Positions 381 to 13,317 of a DNA stretch of 64,000 nt are shown piece after piece. Made by a program: the position numbers and the translations under genes. The DNA comes from Xanthomonas sp. GPE 39 (GTDB lineage Bacteria > Pseudomonadota > Gammaproteobacteria > Xanthomonadales > Xanthomonadaceae), in contig NZ_JZHZ01000007.1 in NCBI RefSeq assembly GCF_000963005.1, forward strand, positions 910,025 through 974,024, written 5' to 3'. Below the pieces are notes generated by a model. It ran no database searches, had not been told where the DNA came from, and saw nothing but the letters and a program-made list of their open reading frames with translations. How positions within the stretch are numbered: position 1 is the first letter of the stretch; every line of letters begins with the position of its first letter.

Positions 381-1706
381 ATGTCGAATAGCGCTACTAT
401 CACTCGCGAACAGCTCCGCACCTTTCTTATTTTTACCGAATTAGGAGGTAATGTAGGCGATTCAAGTCGCTTTTCGTATGCGAAACTCGGTAGTAGCTCA
501 TCTTCTTTTGGTCAATTGCAGTTCGATGTTGATGCAAATCCCGCTGCGCGAGAATTTCTAAGAGATAATGGGTTCACTGAAGCCGATATCACTAAGCTGA
601 GAAATCACGCGCAGCTTTCGGTCGAAGATCAAAATTCGTTAGATTTGAAGTTGCAGGTTATCCATAAGGATAAGATTGATGAATTTACCAATCGACAGTT
701 GGACGTCACGATTGGTCGCGTCGGCGACATCATTGACAATGTTCGTAAGGAAAATCCAAATGCCGCTGATGCCATCAATAAAGATGCAAAATTGCAGCTA
801 GGCATTGCTGACTATGCGAACCAGTTTTCCCCTCGGCATGATGACCAACTTGCTAAGTTTTTGGCGGGTAAACTTGAGCGTGAAATACAGGCAGGTAATC
901 CGCCAACGTTGAATGACTTGCAAAAATTTATCGGTGCCTCACCATATGGCCGTGACTCTGCCAACGCCCGTGGCATTGCAGGCCGTGCAGCACATTTCAA
1001 CGAAGCTATGGCCGAACTCAAGCTTGGTCCTCCTGTAACAAGGCACACTCAGTCAGCACAGCCCCATACCCTCAAACAAGGCATGCACGGCGACGACGTC
1101 AAGCACGTCCAGCAGAAACTGCACGACCTCGGCTATCTGAAGGCTGAGCCGGATGGCCGTTTCGGTTCTGCAACCAAAGCCGCTGCCGAGGACTTTCAGC
1201 GTGCCCAGGGGCTGGTGGTGGACGGCAAACTAGGGCCTGACACGCAGCAGCATCTGGATGCGGCCGTGCGTGACCAGCGCATGCCGGGTTTGGCTCATGA
1301 TCGCGGTGCCCTCTTGCGCGATTTCAGCGACCCCAGCCATCCGCAGAACCCGCTTTACAACACACTCAAGGACGGGTTTCCGCCGGGGACCTCCCCCGAG
1401 TTGCTTACCCAGGCGACGGCGGCCTGTTATATGTCGGGCATCAAGCAGCCCGCTGATCTGGGCAATGTCGTTGGTAGTGGTGGCAGCATCTTGTTCCAGA
1501 CCAACTCGATACACGCCGATAACGCCACGCTCAATACCAATCAACCTGCGCCCAGCGTGCAACACACCATGCAGCAGGTGCAGCAGTTCGAGCAGCAACA
1601 GGCGCAGATTAACGCGCAGCTTCAAGCACAGAACGCGCAGATCAACGCACAAGCCGCGCAGCAGGGGCCGGTCATGGGCGGACCGCCGATGCCAGGTGGG
1701 CGATAA
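381..1706 (+). CDS. Probable type IV secretion antibacterial effector: muramidase-like domain, PG-binding domain, XVIPCD
   Basis: Predicted 441-residue protein delivered to rival bacteria to cut peptidoglycan. The N-terminal 220 residues carry a lysozyme-like signature: Glu20 in FTELGG, followed by SSFGQLQFD at 41-49, resembling the catalytic Glu and S-x-G-x-x-Q pattern of transglycosylase/lysozyme folds. Residues 229-295 are a peptidoglycan-binding type 1 domain (LKQGMHGDDVKHVQQKL, then DGRFGSAT). From 314 (DFSDPSHPQNPLYN) to the Gln-rich tail (QQQAQINAQLQAQNAQ) it resembles the XVIPCD signal that binds VirD4 of the Xanthomonas T4SS. No Sec signal is present, as expected. Base composition is mosaic: bases 421-480 have 23 G+C of 60, bases 1201-1260 have 39 of 60, so the toxin module may be a recent graft on a native delivery tail. 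The exact glycosidase family is not assigned. Confidence 0.72.
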   Translation: MSNSATITREQLRTFLIFTELGGNVGDSSRFSYAKLGSSSSSFGQLQFDVDANPAAREFLRDNGFTEADITKLRNHAQLSVEDQNSLDLKLQVIHKDKIDEFTNRQLDVTIGRVGDIIDNVRKENPNAADAINKDAKLQLGIADYANQFSPRHDDQLAKFLAGKLEREIQAGNPPTLNDLQKFIGASPYGRDSANARGIAGRAAHFNEAMAELKLGPPVTRHTQSAQPHTLKQGMHGDDVKHVQQKLHDLGYLKAEPDGRFGSATKAAAEDFQRAQGLVVDGKLGPDTQQHLDAAVRDQRMPGLAHDRGALLRDFSDPSHPQNPLYNTLKDGFPPGTSPELLTQATAACYMSGIKQPADLGNVVGSGGSILFQTNSIHADNATLNTNQPAPSVQHTMQQVQQFEQQQAQINAQLQAQNAQINAQAAQQGPVMGGPPMPGGR

Positions 1707-3291: not shown

Positions 3292-5250
3292 TCATTGGTG
3301 ATTGCCGGCGTTTGCGCAGACGAATGCCTTGCGCGGTGCGTCGAACTTGCCCAGCATGCGCTCGCTAACGGGCAGCGCATTGCCGTTGAGGCGCCAGTCG
3401 TAGATCACACTGAAGGCGAGGACACGCGCCACGTATTCGCGAGTTTCTTTATAGCTGATTGTCTCGATCCAGAAGTCGGCATCGTAACCGGGACGCTGGG
3501 TTTGCCAGCGTGTCGCGGGGCCAGTGCCGGCGTTGTAAGCGGCGATGGTCAGGTAGGTTTGGCCGTAGCTGTTCAGCAACTGGCGCAGATAAGCGGTGCC
3601 GATGGCGATGTTGATGTCAGGATCGTACAGACTGGCGGCACCGCTGTAGCCGGTCAGGCCGATGGCGCGGGCGATGTTGGCGCCGGTAGCGGGCAGTAAC
3701 TGCATCAGCCCGATGGCGTTGGCCGACGAGCGTGCATTCGGGTTGAAGATGCTTTCGGCACGGATCTCGGCGGCGATCCATGTCGGGTCGATTGCGTTCT
3801 TGCTAGCCTCACGGCGGATACTCGCGTCGTGGTCCAGCGGGAAGCGCAGCAGGTACATGCGTTGTTCTTCCGGATGTTTGCCCAGCGAGAACACCGCGCG
3901 GTCGAACCAACCCGTGTGGCTCGCCACTTCCACCGCTAGCCGCCGTTGCGTGTCGTCGAAACGGCTCAGCGCATCGTTCCATTCGGCGGTTGCCCAGCCG
4001 ATGCGGTCGATCTTGAAGAGTTCCAGCGCTCGGATCATGGCCGGATCGCGTGCCACGGCGGCCTGCGCCTGCGCGTTATCGTTGGGTTCCCACGGACATA
4101 GCGTGTAGGCTTGCTTGAGTCGGTCGGCGGCCATGAAGCCGTGGAAGGTGCTGGACGTTGCGGCCGCGTGGTACAGCCGCTGTGCCTCGGCGGTGTTGCC
4201 GGTTTTTTCAGCGAGCCGTGCCTCGAAATATTGCCAGCGCGAATCGTTGCGCTGCGCCGCCGGCATCTTGCGGATCGCGACCAGTGCCGCTGGCCAGTCG
4301 CCACGCGCCATCGCTTCGCGTGCGCGCCATTCGTACAGGCGCTCGTCGTAGGCCGATTCCGGCACCGCATTGAGCCTGCGCGCCGAATCGGGGCCGTAGG
4401 AGGCCACCGTCCATAGCGCGATCTGGTACAGCACCGCGCCACGTTGCGCCTCGTTGAATTGGAGCGCCTGGGCGAACGAGGGGAGCTGCTGCTCGGCGGC
4501 ATCCGGATCGGTCTTGGCCAGTTTCTCCAGCCCGTCCACGGCGACCTTGCGGCTACGCTCGGTCTTGGGCCAGTTCAGTGCGCGCGGGTGCACGGCATCC
4601 AGAAAGGCGGCGTAATCGTTGGCCAGGCTCAGTTCGGCGGCGGGCAGGCCATGTGCGGCGGCGCGCATGACCGCAGGCTGCTGCGCGTCCGCCGCGGCTT
4701 CCACTCGTTCCCAACGCAGTGCATCGCTGATGCCAGCGTGCGCCTGCAGTGTGTCGAAGACCGTATCGCAGCCATCGGTCGATGACGATTTGATGTTGCT
4801 GCGCCACAACCCCTGCGCCTCCTGGACCCACTGCGCATCGGCATGACCGGTGGCCTGACGCGCGTTGAGTTGCGCACAGCGCAAGCCGAGGTTGTCGGTG
4901 GGCTTCCAGTTTGCCAGCAGCGTTGACCAATCCTGGCGCCGCGCCAGCGCCGCCAGCCATAGCGCTCGGAAACTCTCTGCGACCGGCTGACCGGCGTAGC
5001 GCTTGAGGAAATCCTGCGCCTGTGCATCGGGTACCTGGTCGATTGTGCGGCGCAAGTTGGCGTATTCCAGCCAGCCGTACAGTGGATGCTGTTTGAACGC
5101 GGCGGCCTGGGCGGGATCGAGGTGCCCTTGCTCGGCATCCTCGATTGCCGCGCGTAGTGCCGGACGCTGGGCATCGAGCGATTGGGCGAGAGCGGGCGTG
5201 CTACCGCACAGTGCGGCAGTCAATAGCAGGAGAGAGGTGCGCAGGGTCAT
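3292..5250 (-). CDS. slt: Soluble lytic murein transglycosylase
   Basis: Periplasmic exo-lytic transglycosylase that cleaves the MurNAc-GlcNAc bond of peptidoglycan with 1,6-anhydro product formation. The ATG at 5250 is chosen because it opens directly into a signal peptide (MTLRTSLLLLTAALCGSTP, cleavage near ALAQS); the longer frame to 5334 adds 28 residues with no signal character. The 652-residue length fits the Slt70 family, with a long alpha-helical superhelix (about 25-470) and a C-terminal SLT lysozyme-like domain. The catalytic acid is Glu499 in IRAESIFNPNA, followed by SSANAIGLMQLLPATG. Downstream in this domain, AYNAGTGPATRW is the typical substrate-groove motif. It stands upstream of cca on the same strand. 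Its housekeeping GC contrasts with the cluster that begins 218 bases beyond its start. Confidence 0.93.
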   Translation of the reverse strand: MTLRTSLLLLTAALCGSTPALAQSLDAQRPALRAAIEDAEQGHLDPAQAAAFKQHPLYGWLEYANLRRTIDQVPDAQAQDFLKRYAGQPVAESFRALWLAALARRQDWSTLLANWKPTDNLGLRCAQLNARQATGHADAQWVQEAQGLWRSNIKSSSTDGCDTVFDTLQAHAGISDALRWERVEAAADAQQPAVMRAAAHGLPAAELSLANDYAAFLDAVHPRALNWPKTERSRKVAVDGLEKLAKTDPDAAEQQLPSFAQALQFNEAQRGAVLYQIALWTVASYGPDSARRLNAVPESAYDERLYEWRAREAMARGDWPAALVAIRKMPAAQRNDSRWQYFEARLAEKTGNTAEAQRLYHAAATSSTFHGFMAADRLKQAYTLCPWEPNDNAQAQAAVARDPAMIRALELFKIDRIGWATAEWNDALSRFDDTQRRLAVEVASHTGWFDRAVFSLGKHPEEQRMYLLRFPLDHDASIRREASKNAIDPTWIAAEIRAESIFNPNARSSANAIGLMQLLPATGANIARAIGLTGYSGAASLYDPDINIAIGTAYLRQLLNSYGQTYLTIAAYNAGTGPATRWQTQRPGYDADFWIETISYKETREYVARVLAFSVIYDWRLNGNALPVSERMLGKFDAPRKAFVCANAGNHQ

Positions 5251-5468
5251 GAGCAAGACTATACCGAATGCCGATGAATGGACGTGCCAATGGTGGGCGA
5301 CACGATGACCAGCGAGTCGGCAACCGATGCACAAAATGTCGCGTCAGCATCGACCCGATCTATCGAGAATGACGGTGGTGTGTGATGTATTGCGAATTTC
5401 AATCGAGGTTCCCTGGTATATCGGTGCCGAAAGATGCAGTCAGGGTGTCGTCCGCACTGGGCTTGGCT

Positions 5469-6038
5469 TCACGTGTTGGAGGGTGCCAAGTCGGTCCATT
5501 TTGCCACTGCAATAGCAGCGTCATCTGGCAAGAGATCGGATGTATCGATGCAGAGATGGTTGTCCGCACGGATCGGGACTCTATATGGGCACTGTTGCAG
5601 AATCGCAGCAAGCTGCTCGCAATGGTTGAGCTTTCCGAATGCGCGTCGATCGGGATTCTCTACTCTGTCGATGAGCTGATCGTGACGTGCTTTTAGTTGC
5701 ACAAAATAAGGTGTTGTCAAATATTTTGTGCAGAGAGATTTGAGTGCATCGACATACCAGTCATCATTGGGGCCTTCATAACAAAACGTGGTGACGATGT
5801 TGCGATGCTCGGATTCGAGCAATAAAGAAATCGCGTCGAGTCTCAATCGGCATGCAAACCGCCGGCGAGTCTCGAAGCTGCTATCGGCGCCTAGTAAGGC
5901 GGTGGCGAGATCGTAAGTCAGATGATTATGAAAAAGAGTTGCGGAGAGGTGCTTGGCTACTTCCTTGCCGACAGTTAATTTTCCAACGGCGGGTGGGCCG
6001 TAAAGCATGACGAGTTTTTTGCGGTGGCACAGACTCAT
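5469..6038 (-). CDS. P-loop small-molecule kinase-like protein, last gene of the acquired operon
   Basis: A 189-residue protein with an N-terminal Walker A motif, GPPAVGKLT at residues 14-22, right after a hydrophobic beta strand (KLVMLY), then FHNHLTYDLA. This is the layout of shikimate kinase-like and AAA_18 P-loop kinases, which also include chloramphenicol and hygromycin phosphotransferase-type enzymes. Substrate is unknown. I prefer the ATG at 6038, seven bases after the preceding oxygenase stop; an upstream start at 6077 would overlap that gene. Bases 5701-5760 inside it have only 22 G+C of 60, far below the flanking genes. In the operon it could phosphorylate a pathway intermediate, or protect the producer by phosphorylating the product; both are inference. 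Confidence 0.7.
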   Translation of the reverse strand: MSLCHRKKLVMLYGPPAVGKLTVGKEVAKHLSATLFHNHLTYDLATALLGADSSFETRRRFACRLRLDAISLLLESEHRNIVTTFCYEGPNDDWYVDALKSLCTKYLTTPYFVQLKARHDQLIDRVENPDRRAFGKLNHCEQLAAILQQCPYRVPIRADNHLCIDTSDLLPDDAAIAVAKWTDLAPSNT

Positions 6039-6045
6039 CGTTGTC

Positions 6046-6705
6046 TCACTGGGCGGTTTCTTTCGTCCCTGGTTCATAGTAGGTGACGTTGAGGGTGTTG
6101 CGCGTGAGTCCGCCTGTTGGGGATAGGCGTGTCACTTCATGCCAAGTATCTTCGTAACATCCATCGCGAATTATCAAGGTAGCGTTCCCGATCACGGGAA
6201 CCACGGTGTAGTGAACTTCGTGGTGATCTTGAGGATTGAGAATACGAAGCAATCCACCCCAGTCCAGTTCCCAGCGGGCATTGAAATAGATAATCAGGCG
6301 GAAACCTCGGCGCAACGAAGCATCCACATGTGGCAGGTAGTGCGTGTCTTGGCCTCCCCGAAACGCAACGGCCTCCATCGGGAATTCCGTCAGGTCTGTT
6401 CCGCAGAAATCGGCCATGGACGACCTGAATGCGTCTGACACGAGTTCTTTGCACATTGCGCGCCATGTATCGGACAATGTCGCAGGTTCGTCTACGTCGA
6501 GCGAACCAAGCGGAACCACGGTGCGTCGATAAAAATGTCCGCCGTTGCGTTCGCGGAAGTTGAATCCTTCTGTCGGAAACTCACTTGCCAGTCTGTATGC
6601 TAGCGCGTCGCTATGCCATATTGCCTGCAACTCTCCCCAGTTGAATGGCGTGGAATGGAGTGTTCCTCCTGCAATTTGATCAAGTGCGAAATATTCGGAG
6701 GTCAT
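6046..6705 (-). CDS. 2-oxoglutarate/Fe(II)-dependent oxygenase, prolyl-4-hydroxylase type
   Basis: 219 residues with a jelly-roll core and the iron-binding facial triad: His126-x-Asp128 in YLPHVDAS and the distal His189 in EDTWHEV. Arg202 in TRNTLNVTYY is placed to bind 2-oxoglutarate. The strand RLIIYFNARWE followed by WGGLLRI is characteristic of the P4H-like (2OG-FeII_Oxy) group, where the corresponding region often reads YLN..W....GG.L. The family hydroxylates peptidyl or free amino acids and small metabolites; substrate is not predictable here. It sits between the aminotransferase (25 bases upstream) and the kinase. Possible roles are hydroxylation of an amino-acid scaffold before sulfation or phosphorylation (inference). 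Codon use is AT-shifted relative to chromosome neighbours. Confidence 0.82.
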   Translation of the reverse strand: MTSEYFALDQIAGGTLHSTPFNWGELQAIWHSDALAYRLASEFPTEGFNFRERNGGHFYRRTVVPLGSLDVDEPATLSDTWRAMCKELVSDAFRSSMADFCGTDLTEFPMEAVAFRGGQDTHYLPHVDASLRRGFRLIIYFNARWELDWGGLLRILNPQDHHEVHYTVVPVIGNATLIIRDGCYEDTWHEVTRLSPTGGLTRNTLNVTYYEPGTKETAQ

Positions 6706-6730
6706 GTGTTGCCTCGTGTTAAATAAATAA

Positions 6731-7987
6731 TCAATGGTGCGACGCGTTACTTATCGCGAATGCAAGGTGCTGTGTCAGCTCGTCGATCTCAGTGTCATTG
6801 ATGGTGAAGGGTGGCGCAAGCTTCAGATTTCGATCCGCAGCTCCGATGATTAATCCCTGTCGGCGCGCTTCGTGTTGTACGCGGCCGCATGTTTCTGGTG
6901 AATTGAAAGTGATCGATAGCATCAGGCCTTTTCCTTGTGCGCTCACCACAGTGTCTGTTGTCGGCAAATTTTTGCGAATTTCCTGTAATAAACGCGCTCC
7001 CTTCATCCGGACTTTTTCATAAAATTCTTGTGTGTGCAGGTGGTCGAGAATGAATAAGGCGGCACGGCAGCCTAATAGGTTGCCGGATTGTGTATGTCCA
7101 TGCCGGAAAAGCGGAAAAGGTTGTGATGCGAAGCTTTCGGCAATTTGGGTTGTTGTCATGACGGCGGTGATCGGGAAGCCACCTCCGAGATTCTTACTAA
7201 AAATGACGATATCCGGACTAGCGCCCTGAGAGGCTGACTCGCACAGAACGCCGGTTCTTCCGATGCCACAATAGACTTCGTCGCAAATCAAAGGGATGTC
7301 GTGTGCTCTGGCGAGCGAGGATAGCGCTCGCAAAAAGCCGTGTGGAAATTGCCGTGTTCCCGCCATCGCCATCACCGGCTCGATGATGAGCGCCGCCACG
7401 GTCGATCCGTGTTCGGCAAGAAGCGCCTCCCATGCCGATAAGTCGTCTAGGCTCTGTGGTAGAGGCATCGTCATCGAACAGGTCGAGATAAATGGTAGTG
7501 CGCCTTCGTTGATGAAGGCGCGTCGCGTGGCGACCATCGCCCCGAGCGTGCAGCCATGATAAGCGCCATCAATCGCCACGACTCGCGTCCGCTGTGGCTT
7601 GTTGCGACTGATTTGATAGTGCCATGCCATTTTTAGTGCGGTTTCGACCCCCTCGCTACCACCGCTTACAAGGAATGTATGTGCAAGTCCCGCTGGTGCC
7701 AACGCATCGCCGAGTCGTTCCGCGAGTGCCTCTGGTAGTAATGTGCTTGAGCCGATATTGCACGCGTGGACCAGTGTATCTATCTGCTGTTTGACCACCT
7801 CGATCAGGGCCGGGTGAGAATGACCAAGGCAATGATTATAACTGCCCGATATGCCGTCTAGATAGCGCATGCCCGTCTTGTCGTAGAGATAACTCCCCTG
7901 GCCGCGCACGATTCTAGGTCGGTGATCCTCCGTATTCATGGGCGTATACGGTGGCCAATAGTGGCGTGGTCTAGAGATAGCGCTCAT
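6731..7987 (-). CDS. Class III PLP-dependent aminotransferase, BioA/omega-transaminase-like
   Basis: 418 residues with fold type I aminotransferase landmarks: WPPYTPMN near the N-terminus (like the H-W-x-P-[FY]-T motif of BioA), SGGSEGVETALKMAW for cofactor phosphate contacts, GAYHGCTLGAM, Asp236 in ICDEVYCGIGRTG that contacts the pyridine nitrogen, and Schiff-base Lys265 in FSKNLGGGFP. It should move an amino group between an amino acid or amine and an oxo acid or aldehyde. Genuine bioA lies with bio genes, which are absent here, so a dedicated pathway role is more likely. Its first 17 bases overlap the 3' end of the sulfotransferase gene, implying coupled translation. Substrate unknown. Confidence 0.88.
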   Translation of the reverse strand: MSAISRPRHYWPPYTPMNTEDHRPRIVRGQGSYLYDKTGMRYLDGISGSYNHCLGHSHPALIEVVKQQIDTLVHACNIGSSTLLPEALAERLGDALAPAGLAHTFLVSGGSEGVETALKMAWHYQISRNKPQRTRVVAIDGAYHGCTLGAMVATRRAFINEGALPFISTCSMTMPLPQSLDDLSAWEALLAEHGSTVAALIIEPVMAMAGTRQFPHGFLRALSSLARAHDIPLICDEVYCGIGRTGVLCESASQGASPDIVIFSKNLGGGFPITAVMTTTQIAESFASQPFPLFRHGHTQSGNLLGCRAALFILDHLHTQEFYEKVRMKGARLLQEIRKNLPTTDTVVSAQGKGLMLSITFNSPETCGRVQHEARRQGLIIGAADRNLKLAPPFTINDTEIDELTQHLAFAISNASHH

Positions 7988-9014
7988 ATTGTGTTCCCTG
8001 AAGTTCCAGCTTCAATTGGTCGATATTTTCGATCGTAGACCAGACCGAGGATGTCTCCTTTTTTCCTGTTCCTGGTTCGAGTCTTGCCGCTGAGACATGA
8101 AGGAAGGAAAGTAATTTTTCGTGTACAGATTCTGGTTCGGCGAGTAGGTCTTCGTATTCGATTGACAAGATCTCGTGACAAGCAAAGCGATCATGAAACT
8201 TGGCTAGATTGGCAAGGTCCTGGTCGATAAAGTCTACGAGTTCCCCATGCGGAATGGTGAGTTTGATCTGTTTCCGGAATCTCTTATCGTCACGACCGAC
8301 GTACCAGACCTGATCGAGCAGACTTTTCTTGAGCGACACCAGTCGTTCGAGACGGTTGCGTCGATCCAGCAGGATGATTTTTAGATCCGGCCAGCCAGCC
8401 AGTGTCTCCCAGATATCTGCACCTGCCCACTCTGTGTCGAGATCACGAAAGAGCACGAAGCCGACAGCTTCCACATATTCGAAATACGGTCGAAATAGAT
8501 GTCGCTCAAGAATCCGCTCTGCGCTGGTGTCCTGTACGGAATATGGAAGCAAGTGCTGGCCGAACCGATTGAATGCTTCGCCGTGCATCTCGATACATGG
8601 ATGTGAGCCGAGCAGCGTGCGCAAGAGGTGTGTGCCGGAGCGCGGTGTCGACACGATGGCGAACTTGGTGTACTGCTTCTGTGCGCAGGCGACCTCTTCG
8701 CGCAGGCTGCCGCCCAGCCATTTGTTGTGCTCGGCCTGCGCGACCTGTGCGCGCAGGAGTTCCAGCATCGTGGGCGCGCGATCTGCCAGGCCGAGCATGG
8801 GCGACAATACTTCGTCGCCTCGTAACCCCTGCCGGCTCCAGTTTCTTCCGCCAGCGCGATATTCATGTACGAATTCGGCGATGGCAGAAACCATATCGTC
8901 GTCAATCGCGTGTTTGGCAAGGTCGCTATGAATGCGCGTGGCGAACTCGCGTTCGCTGTAAGACATCCATGCGGACCATTGGGATGTGAGTATCGGTGCT
9001 GTCGTATCCGTCAT
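7971..9014 (-). CDS. PAPS-dependent sulfotransferase with N-terminal helical extension
   Basis: 347 residues. The first ~112 are a predicted helical extension without a recognised domain. The sulfotransferase core starts with FAIVSTPRSGTHLLRTLL; STPRSGT at 122-128 is the 5'-phosphosulfate-binding loop for the sulfuryl donor PAPS. A later helix/strand pair (LKIILLDRRNRLERLVSLKKSLLD, broken here into LKIILLDRRNRLERL and VSLKKSLLD) matches the 3'-phosphate-binding region with its conserved Arg and Ser. It resembles small-molecule Stf0/LPS-type sulfotransferases rather than the ATP-sulfurylase route. It lies 39 bases after the TauD-like gene and overlaps the aminotransferase. No PAPS synthesis genes are nearby, so general sulfur assimilation must supply the donor. 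Acceptor unknown. Confidence 0.85.
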   Translation of the reverse strand: MTDTTAPILTSQWSAWMSYSEREFATRIHSDLAKHAIDDDMVSAIAEFVHEYRAGGRNWSRQGLRGDEVLSPMLGLADRAPTMLELLRAQVAQAEHNKWLGGSLREEVACAQKQYTKFAIVSTPRSGTHLLRTLLGSHPCIEMHGEAFNRFGQHLLPYSVQDTSAERILERHLFRPYFEYVEAVGFVLFRDLDTEWAGADIWETLAGWPDLKIILLDRRNRLERLVSLKKSLLDQVWYVGRDDKRFRKQIKLTIPHGELVDFIDQDLANLAKFHDRFACHEILSIEYEDLLAEPESVHEKLLSFLHVSAARLEPGTGKKETSSVWSTIENIDQLKLELQGTQYERYL

Positions 9015-9053
9015 TTGTGCCGGGTTCGATGTAATGACATGGAAGCCGAAGCG

Positions 9054-9884
9054 CTAGGAAACTTTCTTTGCATGGTGTGCGCACGGTGCTGACAGAAATA
9101 GACCTCGCAATAGAATGCGCGGATTGACAGGGTCGTCGACATAGGCCTTCCGCCCGTGTGAAAGCTGATCGTTGCGTATGATCAATGCCTGCCCTCTTTG
9201 CAGGGTAAAGCTCAGCGTATACCCGCTATCCGGCTCGGCAAGTCGGGTCAAGTAAGCCACAGCATCGAGCACTCGAGGTTCCACGCGGCGCGAATAGTCC
9301 CAGTCCGCAGTCACGTCGATGGTGAAGCCGCCAACGATTCCACCGTCTTCTGCGCTGAGAAATACCGGCCCGATGTGCTCATATTGTCTGTCAAGGCGCG
9401 GATCGGTCGATCTGCGTCGGAACACCTTGGGCGCTAGCAGGCACTGGGCGAGTTCTGGGTGATGCCTGGAAAGCGCATGAAATGCCGCCAGGCTATCGAA
9501 CAGCGTCGATTCGCCACCGCCAAGCGCATGCTGCTTGCAGAGTAGAATCGACGTCTTGATCGTACCAATAGGCAAGTAGGAACCATCGGTATGCAACGCC
9601 GCCCCCGATGTGCCGTTGAATACATCGTGTTGACCGCTGGTTAAACCACCGACCTGGTTGATGCCAGACGTCGACATGCCTTCCATGTGCATGCGGCGGT
9701 TGAAATCGGACTGATACATCGGCCCGAGATGATAGAGCGTCGCCATCCGCTCGAAGTCTGATGCATCGAATCGCCATTCGTCCTGGACGATAGCGAACCC
9801 GTACTTGTCGATATCGCGCATGACGGCCTGTGTGTCGCTCGCATCGAGCACCTGCGCGGACCAACCGTGGAAACGGCTTTGCAT
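9054..9884 (-). CDS. TauD/TfdA-like 2OG-Fe(II) dioxygenase, first gene of the operon
   Basis: 276 residues with the TauD-type facial triad: His98-Thr-Asp100 in AALHTDGSY and distal His243 in NDQLSHGRKAY, then Arg256 to bind the 2-oxoglutarate carboxylate. The spacing between the motifs (about 143 residues) fits the clavaminate synthase/TauD fold, which includes amino-acid hydroxylases of natural-product clusters and sulfonate dioxygenases. An AGAGG sequence about 11 bases before the ATG is a likely ribosome binding site. It is the promoter-proximal gene; the AT-rich gap before it (9885-10431) probably holds the operon promoter. With a sulfotransferase next door, the enzyme could act on a sulfated or sulfonated molecule or on a free amino acid; the sequence does not decide. 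Confidence 0.83.
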   Translation of the reverse strand: MQSRFHGWSAQVLDASDTQAVMRDIDKYGFAIVQDEWRFDASDFERMATLYHLGPMYQSDFNRRMHMEGMSTSGINQVGGLTSGQHDVFNGTSGAALHTDGSYLPIGTIKTSILLCKQHALGGGESTLFDSLAAFHALSRHHPELAQCLLAPKVFRRRSTDPRLDRQYEHIGPVFLSAEDGGIVGGFTIDVTADWDYSRRVEPRVLDAVAYLTRLAEPDSGYTLSFTLQRGQALIIRNDQLSHGRKAYVDDPVNPRILLRGLFLSAPCAHHAKKVS

Positions 9885-10431
9885 GCTCTACCTCTGGCGA
9901 AGTAAAATTTTAATCCTGAAATTTTTCTGGGAAACGCATGCGACAGAGTTTCATAGGAAAGCCAGGTGATCATCGCCTTCTGGCTTCGCAGAACGCATAA
10001 AATTTGGCGTTTTTACATCACTAATAATAAAAATGAAATTTTTTGTTCGTGCAACAAATTTTCAGTGATTCAGATCAACAAATTATGGTTGATTGATTTC
10101 TCTGTGTTCGACACGAAGAGCGCGATTACAACTTTCAGATCGTTGTATTTTGCCAATGAAGCAATAGCTCTTTAGCTTGCACGTACGCTCTATCATGTAC
10201 GTAAAGAAATCAGCATGCCGTGATGTTCTCCCCATTCCGGTTCGCAGTCCAATTTTCGCGTAGGACTGACGATGGCACCGTTGCCTTTGCTACGGGATGC
10301 GGGGTCTTTTCGTTAGGTGGGTGTCGTGTGTTGGTGCTTGCGTGTCGTTCATGATTTGATTACAACGCATCTATGCCCGCGCGGTACAGGGGGCGCAACG
10401 ACTGGCCCACATCCTTTCCGGAGAGAGACGG
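9885..10431. other. AT-rich divergent intergenic region between the acquired operon and the TonB receptor
   Basis: No convincing gene: the open frames inside (for example 9966-10175 on +) have no recognisable protein character. The stretch from about 9900 to 10200 is strongly AT-rich, unlike either flank, and separates divergent genes, so it should hold both promoters. An inverted repeat ACGTAC at 10181-10186 and GTACGT at 10197-10202, with a 10-base spacer, could be an operator. From about 10230 to the receptor start the composition returns to high GC, which may mark the edge of the imported segment. Confidence 0.5.
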
Positions 10432-13317
10432 ATGAACGTCCTGCACCGTCATCGTTTGGTTTTCGTAGTTTCTTCGACCTTGCTCGCAGGTGCCCCAGCG
10501 TTGGCCGGAGCACAGCAGGGCGCGGCGACCGCTTCCGCGACGACCACCACGCTGGATGGCGTTCAGGTCACCGGAACGCGCATCCGCCGCGCCGAAGTGG
10601 AAGGCCAGGTACCAGTGCAGCGCCTGAGCCGTGCCGATATCGAGCGTACTGGCCTGACCTCCATCGGCGATGTGTTGCAGCAACTCACCGCCTCCGGCTC
10701 GGCGTTGAATGCCAAGTTCAACTCCTCCGGCAACCAGGGCTTTCCGCCCGACGGCAGCGGCGTTGGGGCTGGCTCGGCTCAGGTGGACCTGCGCCATCTC
10801 GGCGCCAAGCGCGTGTTGGTGCTGGTCGATGGCATGCGGTGGGTCAACGAGTCCTCCGCATCGGGGGTGGGCGCGGCGACCGATCTCAATACCATTCCGT
10901 TGGCGATCGTCGAGCGTATCGAGGTGCTGGAGGATGGTGCTTCCTCGCTGTATGGCTCCGACGCGATTGCCGGTGTGGTCAACATCATCACCCGGCGCAG
11001 TTTCGAGGGCGGCCAGGTGACGCTGAGCGATGGTCTGTACGACAAGGGCGATGGCGCGAACAAGGGCGTGGATCTGGCTTGGGGCCATAGCAACGAGCGC
11101 GCCAGCGTGTTCGTCGGTGCCAGCGATACCAAGCAGGATCCGATCTATGCACGTGATCGCGCGCAGTCGTCGTATCCGGTTCCCGGTACCGGGGTGAGCT
11201 TCGGTAGCTCGGCCATACCCGATGGGCGTTTCATCTTCATCGATCCCAATACCGGCGCCCAGCAGGATCTGACACCGAATCATGGTGTCGCCTCGCCCCG
11301 TTACGACGGCAGCCCCGGCTGCAGCCGTCGCGACGATTATCATTGTTTCAGCACCGCCGACCGCTACAACTTCGCCCCCTCCAACCTGCTGCTGACGCCT
11401 TCGGAGCGCAAGGGCGTGTATGGTCAGTTGCGTTTCTTCTTCAACGATGAGATGCAGTGGTATCTGAAACTGCTGGAAAATCGGCGGACATCGACCAATC
11501 AGGCCGCGCCGGAGCCGATTTTTCTGGGGCCAGGCGCCGGCACCGGAAATCCGCTGGCCGATAATGTGTCCGTTTCTGCGGCCAATCCATATAACCCGTT
11601 TGGCTTCGCGCTGGATCCGGCGCGTAATCTGATCATGATTGCGCGTCGGCCGGTGGAGGGCGGCATGCGTGTGTTCGAGCAGCGCGTGGATACGCATTAC
11701 ATCGGGACCGGCCTGATCGGTAGTTTTCAAGGCGCTGATCGGACCTGGTTCTGGGATGTCAACGGCACCTACAGCAAGAATCACGCCGAGCAGACCAACC
11801 ATGGCAGTTACAACATCTACAACATCAACGTGGCGTTGGGTGATCCGGCTGCATGCGCGGCGGTGCCCGGTTGTGTGCCGCTGAATCTCTTCGGCGGTGC
11901 TGGCAGTATCACGCCAAGTATGTTGCGCTGGATTCAGCCGGTGCTGCACGATCGCAGTCAGAACGTACTGACCCAGTTCACCAGCAACCTCAGTAGCGAT
12001 CTGTTCCGACTCCCCGCAGGTGCGGTGTCCTTCGCCACCGGGATCGAATATCGCAGGTACGAGGGCTGGTATCAGCCCGATCCATTGACCGTGATCGGCC
12101 ATTACAACGGGGTGCCGTCGTTGCCGACCCAGGGCAGTTACGATGTCAAAGAGGCTTACCTCGAACTGAGCGTGCCGATTTTCGCCGACTCGCCGCTGGG
12201 CGATAAACTGGATCTCAGCCTGGCAGGGCGTTATTCGGATTATTCCACCTTCGGTAGCGAATTCACGCCGAAGTACGGCCTGCGCTGGCAGGTGTCGCCG
12301 GATTTCGTGCTGCGTACCGGCTATGCCGAAGGCTTTCGTGCCCCTAGCATTGGCGAGTTGTATGGCTCGGCCGCGCGTGCGGACCTGACGCTCTCCGACC
12401 CGTGTTCGGTTGGCCTGGGCGGTACCGCGCCGCGCGGCAGTGCGTCCCATTGCGCCGCGCTTGGTGCGCCGGCCGGTTATCAGCAGGCCAATGCGCAGAT
12501 CTCGGTGACCACCGGCGGCAACCGGGCGCTGAAGCCTGAGAAGGCGCGCAGCTTCAGTGCGGGCTTCGTGTGGAGCCCATGGTTCGCCAGTAGCGTGCCG
12601 TGGTCGGACCACTTCGATATCGATGTCACCTTCTACCGTCATGACATCGATGGCGCGATCCAGGCGATCAATGCGCAATCCCAGCTCGATGCGTGCGTGC
12701 AGACGCTCTCGCCCATCTACTGTCAAGGTATCACCCGCGCCGCCACGGGCGTCATCAACGGTTTCAATAACCGCCTGACCAATCTTGGCGCGATCAAGAC
12801 CGACGGTTGGGATGTGGGCATGTTCTGGAGCTCGCCGGAAACGGCGCGCGGACGCTTCAAGCTGCGCTGGCAGAATACGTTCGTTACCCGCTACGTCGCC
12901 ACGGGGGCTGCCGGCCAAGTGCAACCGCAACGCCCCGGCGTGGAGGTGGTGGACAGCGCCATCCCGGAGTGGACCAGCACCATGACGCTGGATTGGACGC
13001 GTGGACGCTGGAATGCGTCATGGACGCTGCGGCATCTGTCCGCACTGACCGAGCAGTGCGGCGACGCGGTTGCATTTGCAGTGTGCAGTCATCAGGTCGC
13101 CGGGACCAACACGCTGGCGGCGATCACCTATCACGACGCGCAGGTGGGCTACCGCTTCGATTGGCTCAAGGGGATGACTGTCAGCGGCGGCGTCAACAAT
13201 GTGTTCGACAAGAATCCGCCGATCTGTTTGTCGTGTTCGCTCAATGGCTACGATGCCTCGACCTATGGGATTCCCGGCGGTCGTTATCTGTATGCGCGCG
13301 TGGATGTGAAGTTTTAG
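10432..13317 (+). CDS. TonB-dependent outer membrane receptor
   Basis: 961-residue outer membrane transporter. A signal peptide occupies about residues 1-27 ([14 protein letters not shown]), followed by a short linker and a TonB-box-like start of the plug ([14 protein letters not shown]). The plug domain shows [33 protein letters not shown] and [23 protein letters not shown], typical of the family. The barrel ends in an aromatic-terminated strand, [10 protein letters not shown], as expected for BamA-dependent assembly. Several pairs of cysteines ([23 protein letters not shown]) suggest disulfide-linked extracellular loops. The subfamily resembles the large Xanthomonas/Caulobacter receptors for carbohydrate or peptide ligands, not a clear siderophore receptor. 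It is divergent from the sulfotransferase operon across a 547-base gap; a functional link to that operon is speculative. Confidence 0.93.

What the first reader, a model, noticed from the sequence alone, without database searches (positions are those of the whole stretch)
5469..9884. Uncharacterised acquired operon: two 2OG-Fe oxygenases, sulfotransferase, class III aminotransferase, P-loop kinase
Five genes on one strand, several overlapping or within a few tens of bases, all with intact catalytic motifs (HxD...H triads in both oxygenases, PAPS loop STPRSGT, Schiff-base Lys265, Walker A GPPAVGKLT). Base composition is markedly lower than both flanks (22 G+C of 60 in bases 5701-5760) and an AT-rich gap sits at the promoter end. 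No NRPS, PKS or biosynthetic class gene is present, so standard cluster detectors may miss it. The set could build a hydroxylated, aminated, sulfated and/or phosphorylated small molecule, perhaps from a free amino acid. I do not recognise it as a described pathway. The kinase may be a biosynthetic or self-protection enzyme.
Basis: partly seen in the sequence, partly recalled or inferred. Interest (0 to 1): 0.85.

Follow-up and report, generated by a model that had tools for sequence, protein, structure and literature searches.

The report
Mobile five-enzyme operon of plant pathogens
A bacterium related to Xanthomonas albilineans carries an acquired five-enzyme operon that is the same set found beside a virulence gene on Pseudomonas syringae plasmids, and probably makes a still unidentified sulfated small molecule.

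Summary
The five genes are real, intact and operon-like (gaps 39, -17, 25, -32 bp), in an insert of about 5 kb whose G+C (0.529) is the lowest of any 5040-bp window sampled in 100-bp steps. In 18 of 20 genus genomes the same site is empty, so acquisition is shown. It is not undescribed: the same five genes in the same order lie downstream of avrD on P. syringae plasmids; by gene order they are PSPPH_A0110-A0106, which Mucyn et al. 2014 (passages read) found HrpL-regulated. Deleting A0107 lowered growth on bean, and the authors noted relatives in Xanthomonas. Added here: the set is a separable cassette. None of 7 cluster-bearing Xanthomonas genomes has avrD, against 2 of 2 positive controls. 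It sits at several different sites, is conserved (dN/dS 0.07-0.23), and lives here in a genome where no injectisome SctV was found. The sulfotransferase is collinear with the nodulation sulfotransferase HsnD/NodH. Best reading: a mobile pathway to a hydroxylated, aminated, sulfated small molecule acting in or on plants. Substrate and product are unknown. New member of a known kind.

The parts
9054..9884 (-). gene 1: TauD/TfdA-type 2OG-Fe(II) dioxygenase, 276 aa (HTD...H intact)
   Evidence: PF02668 4.7e-29; H98, D100, H243 invariant in 7 aligned rows
7971..9014 (-). gene 2: PAPS sulfotransferase, 347 aa; N-terminal ~110 aa extension plus NodH/HsnD-collinear domain 118-347
   Evidence: PF13469 5.9e-13; 25.6-31.4% to the listed non-Pseudomonas plasmid sulfotransferases, HsnD among them; alignment
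6731..7987 (-). gene 3: class III PLP aminotransferase, 418 aa, Schiff-base Lys265
   Evidence: PF00202 2e-83; K265 and D236 invariant in 8 aligned rows
6046..6705 (-). gene 4: prolyl-4-hydroxylase-like 2OG-Fe(II) oxygenase, 219 aa; counterpart of PSPPH_A0107 by gene order
   Evidence: PF13640 2.1e-07; H126, D128, H189 invariant in 8 aligned rows
5469..6077 (-). gene 5: small P-loop kinase, 202 aa, Walker A GPPAVGKLT
   Evidence: sub-threshold AAA_18; Walker A invariant in 8 aligned rows; kinase fold in a medium-confidence model
9885..10333 (.). AT-rich leader between the operon and the homologous TonB-side flank; presumed promoter region
   Evidence: GC 0.448 in 9751-10250; no PIP or hrp box found; no sigma-70-like site
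5294..10333 (.). approximate limits of the inserted DNA: homology to empty-site genomes ends at 5285-5299 on the left and resumes at 10333-10336 on the right
   Evidence: BLASTN of window flanks against 8 of the 18 empty-site intergenic regions; empty site in 18 of 20 genus genomes
3292..5334 (-). left neighbour: soluble lytic transglycosylase (core gene at the insertion site)
   Evidence: PF01464 4.3e-28; present in 20 of 20 genus genomes
10432..13317 (+). right neighbour: TonB-dependent receptor (core gene at the insertion site)
   Evidence: PF00593 1.8e-45; next to the transglycosylase in 18 of 18 empty-site genomes

Best explanation
The five genes are one co-transcribed, horizontally moving cassette, orthologous to the module that lies downstream of avrD on P. 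syringae virulence plasmids (PSPPH_A0110-A0106). It most likely encodes a short pathway from a soluble primary metabolite to a small, polar, sulfated compound that promotes growth in plants. Proposed chemistry: the TauD-type and P4H-like oxygenases each oxidise a C-H bond or an alcohol; the aminotransferase converts a carbonyl to an amine; the NodH-type sulfotransferase places a sulfate from PAPS on a hydroxyl; the small kinase phosphorylates an intermediate, or the finished compound to keep it harmless inside the cell. The pathway does not need AvrD, and in this genome it persists without a detected injectisome. Shown: the genes, operon layout, intact motifs, synteny, acquisition, purifying selection, absence of avrD from the Xanthomonas carriers. 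Shown by others in P. syringae: HrpL control and reduced bean growth of an A0107 mutant. Inferred: co-transcription here, order of steps, substrate, product, role in this organism.
For: All five genes in the same order in 6 of 6 other Xanthomonas genomes and 5 of 6 Pseudomonas loci. 0 internal stops in 45 genes and dN/dS 0.074-0.234 in 36 of 40 comparisons, the other 4 having saturated dS. Empty site in 18 of 20 genus genomes. Low G+C. AvrD in 0 of 20 genus genomes (no positive control of its own) and in 0 of 6 cluster-bearing Xanthomonas genomes against 2 of 2 positive controls. 3 of 14 plasmid records with a full-length sulfotransferase match have no avrD match, one of them inspected. Strong sulfotransferase matches: 4 of 247 family genomes, 1 of 398 genomes of the genus of L031's Pseudomonas, that one being L031's own genome. 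Mucyn et al. 2014, passages.
Against: No product, substrate or activity was found for any of the five. Nothing was measured in the window's organism. Neither of the two regulatory sequences sought (PIP box, hrp box) is upstream here. No transporter lies within the five genes, so export is unexplained. In the passages I read, only one of these five genes (A0107) had a mutant, the effect was called slight, and the authors report a conflict with earlier work that saw no growth defect of an avrD replacement. One carrier plasmid comes from a soil isolate (Pseudomonas sp. KBS0707). The kinase family is unnamed, and the P4H-like protein could not be modelled (pLDDT 36).
Confidence: 0.66

Rival explanations
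1. The five enzymes tailor syringolide, the AvrD product, so the cassette is the second half of a syringolide-type pathway and the window copy is a remnant that has lost its substrate.
For: In the four plasmid records opened first the cluster genes follow avrD and a histidine phosphatase; 11 of 14 plasmid records with a full-length sulfotransferase match also have avrD.
Against: AvrD was not found in 7 of 7 cluster-bearing Xanthomonas genomes although all five genes are under purifying selection, which a remnant would not be. 6 of 17 Pseudomonas plasmid records with avrD lack a full-length sulfotransferase match. Mucyn et al. state that avrD alone in E. coli yields syringolides.
Confidence: 0.1
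2. The sulfotransferase and partners decorate a larger signal, such as a glycan, lipopolysaccharide fragment or peptide, in the way NodH sulfates Nod factor, so the product is a modified envelope or signal molecule and not a free small metabolite.
For: The sulfotransferase domain is collinear with HsnD/NodH; 89 of the 97 non-Pseudomonas plasmid records with a match are from Sinorhizobium, Rhizobium, Mesorhizobium or Ensifer; the P4H-like enzyme has a weak match to the peptide oxygenase YhhC (20 bits against a cut-off of 150).
Against: No glycosyltransferase, acyltransferase or precursor peptide among the conserved five; the YhhC match is far below its cut-off; 26-31% identity does not fix a substrate.
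Confidence: 0.16
3. The genes are co-transferred but serve separate primary or catabolic pathways, for example sulfur, amine or amino-acid use in the plant, and not biosynthesis of a bioactive compound.
For: TauD-family and class III aminotransferase enzymes often act in catabolism (general knowledge); no export or resistance gene is in the set.
Against: Overlapping genes and strict five-gene synteny across two families; a PAPS-using sulfotransferase adds sulfate at an energy cost and does not fit sulfur scavenging (general knowledge); carriers found are Xanthomonas and the P. syringae group, with one soil isolate.
Confidence: 0.08

Closest known systems
avrD-linked operon PSPPH_A0112-A0106 of Pseudomonas savastanoi pv. 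phaseolicola 1448A (Mucyn et al. 2014, PMC3879358; passages read)
   Same: The five genes PSPPH_A0110-A0106 match the window operon in order, and the window proteins are 57-69% identical to the 1448A plasmid copies (L020).
   Different: In P. syringae the set follows avrD and a histidine phosphatase, with an hrp box upstream of avrD in 5 of 5 loci; the window copy is chromosomal, has neither gene beside it and no hrp box.
   Same: All five genes, same order, no avrD found.
   Different: The CFBP2523 copy occupies the same site; G186 has its copy near an integrase-like ORF, LMG 31884 near XopH and AvrBs1-family effector genes, arboricola between two identical IS3 copies.
NodH/HsnD nodulation sulfotransferase
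   Same: Collinear catalytic domain with the PAPS loop and a conserved downstream Glu.
   Different: About 26-31% identity over roughly two thirds of the protein; a ~110-residue N-terminal extension.
AvrD/syringolide pathway
   Same: Neighbour on P. syringae plasmids.
   Different: AvrD not found in any of 7 cluster-bearing Xanthomonas genomes.

Membership tests
PSPPH_A0110-A0106 module (avrD-linked HrpL operon) | the five genes in fixed order and one orientation | tested here: met
   tblastn of all five window proteins on P. syringae and Xanthomonas loci; annotated order
PSPPH_A0110-A0106 module (avrD-linked HrpL operon) | avrD and histidine phosphatase upstream | tested here: not met
   AvrD 0 of 1 own genome, 0 of 20 genus, 0 of 6 cluster-bearing Xanthomonas with 2 of 2 positive controls; no phosphatase match in the fetched Xanthomonas loci. 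So the window is filed under the five-gene module, not under the avrD operon.
PSPPH_A0110-A0106 module (avrD-linked HrpL operon) | hrp box promoter | tested here: not met
   recalled consensus GGAAC[CTA]-N15-17-CCAC found upstream of avrD in 5 of 5 P. syringae loci, in 0 of 7 Xanthomonas upstream regions of 600 bp
PSPPH_A0110-A0106 module (avrD-linked HrpL operon) | contribution to growth in plants | not testable with these tools
   published for A0107 and avrD mutants of 1448A (passages)
HrpX/PIP-box regulon of Xanthomonas | TTCGB-N15-TTCGB upstream (recalled consensus) | tested here: not met
   none in 600 bp upstream in the window; present at -233 in 2 of 7 Xanthomonas loci (L027, L029); L023 has one N8-spaced variant at -253
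TauD/TfdA 2OG dioxygenase | PF02668 above cut-off and HxD...H ligands | tested here: met
   102.5 bits against 27; ligands invariant
P4H-like 2OG oxygenase | 2OG-FeII_Oxy_3 above cut-off and HxD...H ligands | tested here: met
   32.2 bits against 27; ligands invariant
class III aminotransferase | Aminotran_3 above cut-off and PLP lysine | tested here: met
   280.8 bits against 30.5; K265 invariant; no NCBIfam cut-off reached among the 25 families shown of 69, so no specific reaction
PAPS sulfotransferase, NodH-like | Sulfotransfer_3 above cut-off, PAPS loop, collinearity with NodH | tested here: met
   50 bits against 27; alignment with one HsnD
NodH (Nod-factor sulfotransferase proper) | nod gene context and Nod-factor acceptor | not tested
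   no search for nod genes was made; the acceptor cannot be tested here
small-molecule P-loop kinase (shikimate/gluconate kinase-like fold) | Walker A and kinase fold | tested here: inconclusive
   Walker A invariant; top fold rows are a putative kinase (2rhm), shikimate and gluconate kinases, with adenylate and APS kinases close behind, but model pLDDT is 63 and AAA_18 is below cut-off
syringolide biosynthesis | AvrD | tested here: not met

The most novel reading that the evidence does not exclude
A self-sufficient, mobile five-enzyme pathway, with a NodH-type sulfotransferase at its core, makes a diffusible sulfated plant-active compound. It circulates among unrelated plant pathogens, in places near type III effector genes and insertion sequences, is plugged into whatever virulence promoter is at hand, and works even in a Xanthomonas relative in which no injectisome was detected; its product would be an undescribed class of bacterial signal or phytotoxin.
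Probability: 0.33. Interest if true: 0.78.

Novelty: new member of a known kind. Interest (0 to 1): 0.5.

Why it matters
A virulence-associated gene set has been in print since 2014, and my searches found no product for it. Showing that its core is a five-gene unit independent of avrD narrows the question to five enzymes and one metabolite, and points to paired genomes (with and without, same site) in which to look. If the product is a sulfated plant-active compound, it would be a shared chemical tool of several crop pathogens that sequence-based cluster finders may miss, since the five genes include no NRPS or PKS gene.

Tried and rejected
Rejected: chance neighbours (five-gene synteny in 6 of 6 other Xanthomonas genomes and 5 of 6 Pseudomonas loci); decaying remnant (no stops, dN/dS 0.07-0.23); syringolide tailoring as the main reading (avrD absence); phage origin, weakly (no match to the sulfotransferase in 50,697 phage records; the other four were not searched there); anti-phage defence (PADLOC gave only a generic 2OG model at 29 bits and a DolB match at 17 bits over 34 residues).

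Led nowhere: seven distant plasmid relatives of single genes were opened (Jeotgalibacillus, Vibrio parahaemolyticus, Streptomyces, Priestia, Mesorhizobium, Nostoc, Vibrio campbellii). None showed a second gene of the set by annotation, though the Streptomyces one has a clavaminate-synthase-type oxygenase and the Mesorhizobium one a class I/II aminotransferase nearby, and the two Vibrio records and the Jeotgalibacillus one are annotated mostly as hypothetical or not at all. The class-wide stray hit G491 is a different sulfotransferase next to an ORF that looks like a glycosyltransferase by eye. Papers: listings; passages of PMC3879358, PMC1557829, PMC2856684, PMC3639832, PMC3071791 and PMC12448352. 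None of these names a product of the five genes; subscription journals are mostly not in that library. PMC3639832 lists A0109 as lower at 18 than at 28 degrees (ratio 0.49). PDB identifiers 9ei6, 9ei7, 9blq and 7n7v gave no relevant paper. The paper's statement that Acidovorax, Pectobacterium and Ralstonia also have relatives was not confirmed here: the genome-contig scan used two N-terminal patterns and returned only Xanthomonas and Pseudomonas, and two Ralstonia accessions were not held. The structure of the P4H-like protein failed (pLDDT 36). Fold lists for the kinase include adenylate and APS kinases and tunicamycin resistance protein and do not choose between them. Promoter-like and terminator-like sites were no commoner than in shuffles.
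Full report
WHAT IS THERE. The gaps are 39, -17, 25 and -32 bp, which fits one transcript. Pfam supports the first four above the curated cut-off; the kinase has only a sub-threshold AAA_18 match. The metal ligands, the PAPS loop, Lys265 and the Walker A motif are present and invariant among the aligned orthologs.

WHERE IT CAME FROM. The insert (about 5294-10333) has G+C 0.529 against 0.628 for the rest of the window, and no other 5040-bp stretch sampled in 100-bp steps is lower. All 20 genus genomes searched have the left neighbour, the lytic transglycosylase. In 18 of those 20 the TonB receptor follows it directly; only the window genome and G214 carry the operon between the two. BLAST of the window flanks against eight of the 18 empty sites gives the limits, 5285-5299 and 10333-10336. 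G186 has an empty site here but carries the operon elsewhere. The two species that share the site differ by about the same synonymous distance in the operon (dS 0.37-0.54) as in the three flanking genes (dS 0.34-0.44), which suggests arrival before they split.

WHAT IT IS RELATED TO. tblastn of the sulfotransferase against 72,556 plasmid records finds 14 with full-length matches, all Pseudomonas. In the three intact records opened first the order is avrD, histidine phosphatase, then the same five genes; in a fourth the aminotransferase is cut and IS91 genes follow. This is the operon of Mucyn et al. 2014 (PMC3879358; passages read). There it is HrpL-regulated in P. savastanoi pv. phaseolicola 1448A, deletion of avrD or of PSPPH_A0107 reduced growth on bean (slightly, and in conflict with an earlier avrD result that the authors discuss), a secondary metabolite was suggested, and relatives in Xanthomonas, Acidovorax, Pectobacterium and Ralstonia were mentioned. 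I equate A0107 with the P4H-like gene by gene order and product names; the plasmid table gives only newer tags. A 2010 paper on P. syringae pv. aesculi lists A0110-A0106 in a presence/absence table (PMC2856684; one passage).

THE CASSETTE IS SEPARABLE FROM avrD. In named genomes the set occurs in X. albilineans, X. axonopodis, Xanthomonas sp. LMG 31884, X. vasicola and X. arboricola, beside two Pseudomonas (7 loci). With the window genome and G186 that makes seven Xanthomonas genomes, all with five genes in order; of six Pseudomonas loci, five have all five. AvrD (PF05655) was found in 0 of 20 genus genomes (which has no positive control of its own) and in 0 of 6 cluster-bearing Xanthomonas genomes, while two of two positive controls rang; G214, the seventh carrier, is covered. 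On plasmids, 11 of the 14 full-length records also have avrD and 3 do not; 6 of 17 Pseudomonas records with avrD lack a full-length sulfotransferase match. In one record without avrD an IS3 transposase lies upstream instead. Surroundings differ: XopH and AvrBs1-family genes in LMG 31884, two identical 1197-bp IS3 copies in X. arboricola, an integrase-like ORF with a 192-bp repeat in G186. The gene set is rare: strong sulfotransferase matches in 4 of 247 family genomes (12 further genomes have weak matches, E 1.9e-9 or worse), 3 of 20 genus genomes and 1 of 398 genomes of the genus of L031's Pseudomonas, that one being L031's own genome. In a draw of 369 class genomes the TauD query matched the window's own genome only, and the sulfotransferase query matched that and one stray sulfotransferase in a different setting. 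The carriers named are plant pathogens except one soil isolate, Pseudomonas sp. KBS0707.

IT IS MAINTAINED. Across nine loci, none of the 45 genes has an internal stop, and dN/dS of the window gene against the others is 0.074-0.234 in the 36 comparisons where dS was not saturated; 4 were saturated. For the three flanking genes against CFBP2523 it is 0.06-0.14. In one P. syringae locus (L031) the start of the P4H-like gene as I cut it is not a start codon, so that start is uncertain. The window genome's single match to the SctV/HrcV model is FlhA, below the SctV cut-off, while 4 of 20 genus genomes (G214, G186, G202, G613) exceed it. So no injectisome was found here; one marker and a 99.9% complete assembly leave some doubt.

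REGULATION. An hrp box lies upstream of avrD in 5 of 5 P. syringae loci. A PIP-like box lies at -233 in two of seven Xanthomonas loci (L027, L029), whose upstream regions resemble each other; the other five, the window included, have none with that spacing, and L023 has an N8-spaced variant (both consensus patterns recalled). The pattern scan found no sigma-70-like site in the leader. Control in this organism is therefore unknown.

HOW IT MOST LIKELY WORKS. Two oxygenases, an aminotransferase, a sulfotransferase and a kinase, with no assembly-line enzyme among them, suggest stepwise modification of a soluble metabolite. The sulfotransferase domain (118-347) is collinear with HsnD/NodH, so sulfation of a hydroxyl on a polar, perhaps sugar-like acceptor is the most concrete lead; identity is only about 26-31%. 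The kinase model (pLDDT 63) resembles small-molecule kinases such as shikimate and gluconate kinase, and also adenylate and APS kinases; biosynthetic, protective and PAPS-supplying roles all stay open. The histidine phosphatase of P. syringae gave no match in the fetched Xanthomonas loci and probably belongs with AvrD; that is inference. Order of steps, substrate and product are inferred or unknown.

VERDICT. The claim of an undescribed operon is only partly right. The advance is that the unit is a five-gene cassette, mobile, conserved, free of avrD, and present in a Xanthomonas relative without a detected injectisome. I file it as a new member of the PSPPH_A0110-A0106 module, not of the avrD operon.

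Noticed in passing
window 381-1706: 441-aa protein with a peptidoglycan-binding domain (PF01471) in a low-G+C left edge (0.42-0.46), Gln-rich C-terminus; resembles Xanthomonas type IV secretion effectors from recall only.
   Followed up: partly
L023 5613-12502: In G186 the operon lies beside an integron-integrase-like ORF below the family cut-off and between two 94.8% identical 192-bp repeats whose sequence looks like an ilvD 3' end (recall).
   Followed up: partly
L029 6955-8151 and 13576-14772: Two 100% identical 1197-bp IS3-type copies in direct orientation flank the operon in X. arboricola pv. juglandis, a composite-transposon-like layout.
   Followed up: partly
L027 14663-17005 and 6763-7830: In Xanthomonas sp. 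LMG 31884 the operon is followed by XopH and AvrBs1-family genes; a XopE-like ORF below the family cut-off lies upstream.
   Followed up: no
L021 9998-10402: On P. amygdali pv. morsprunorum plasmid NZ_CP026559 the aminotransferase match stops after about 134 residues and IS91 genes follow.
   Followed up: no
G000 whole genome: The 3.53-Mb window genome has flagellar FlhA but no SctV/HrcV above cut-off, unlike its close relative G214, which has one.
   Followed up: partly
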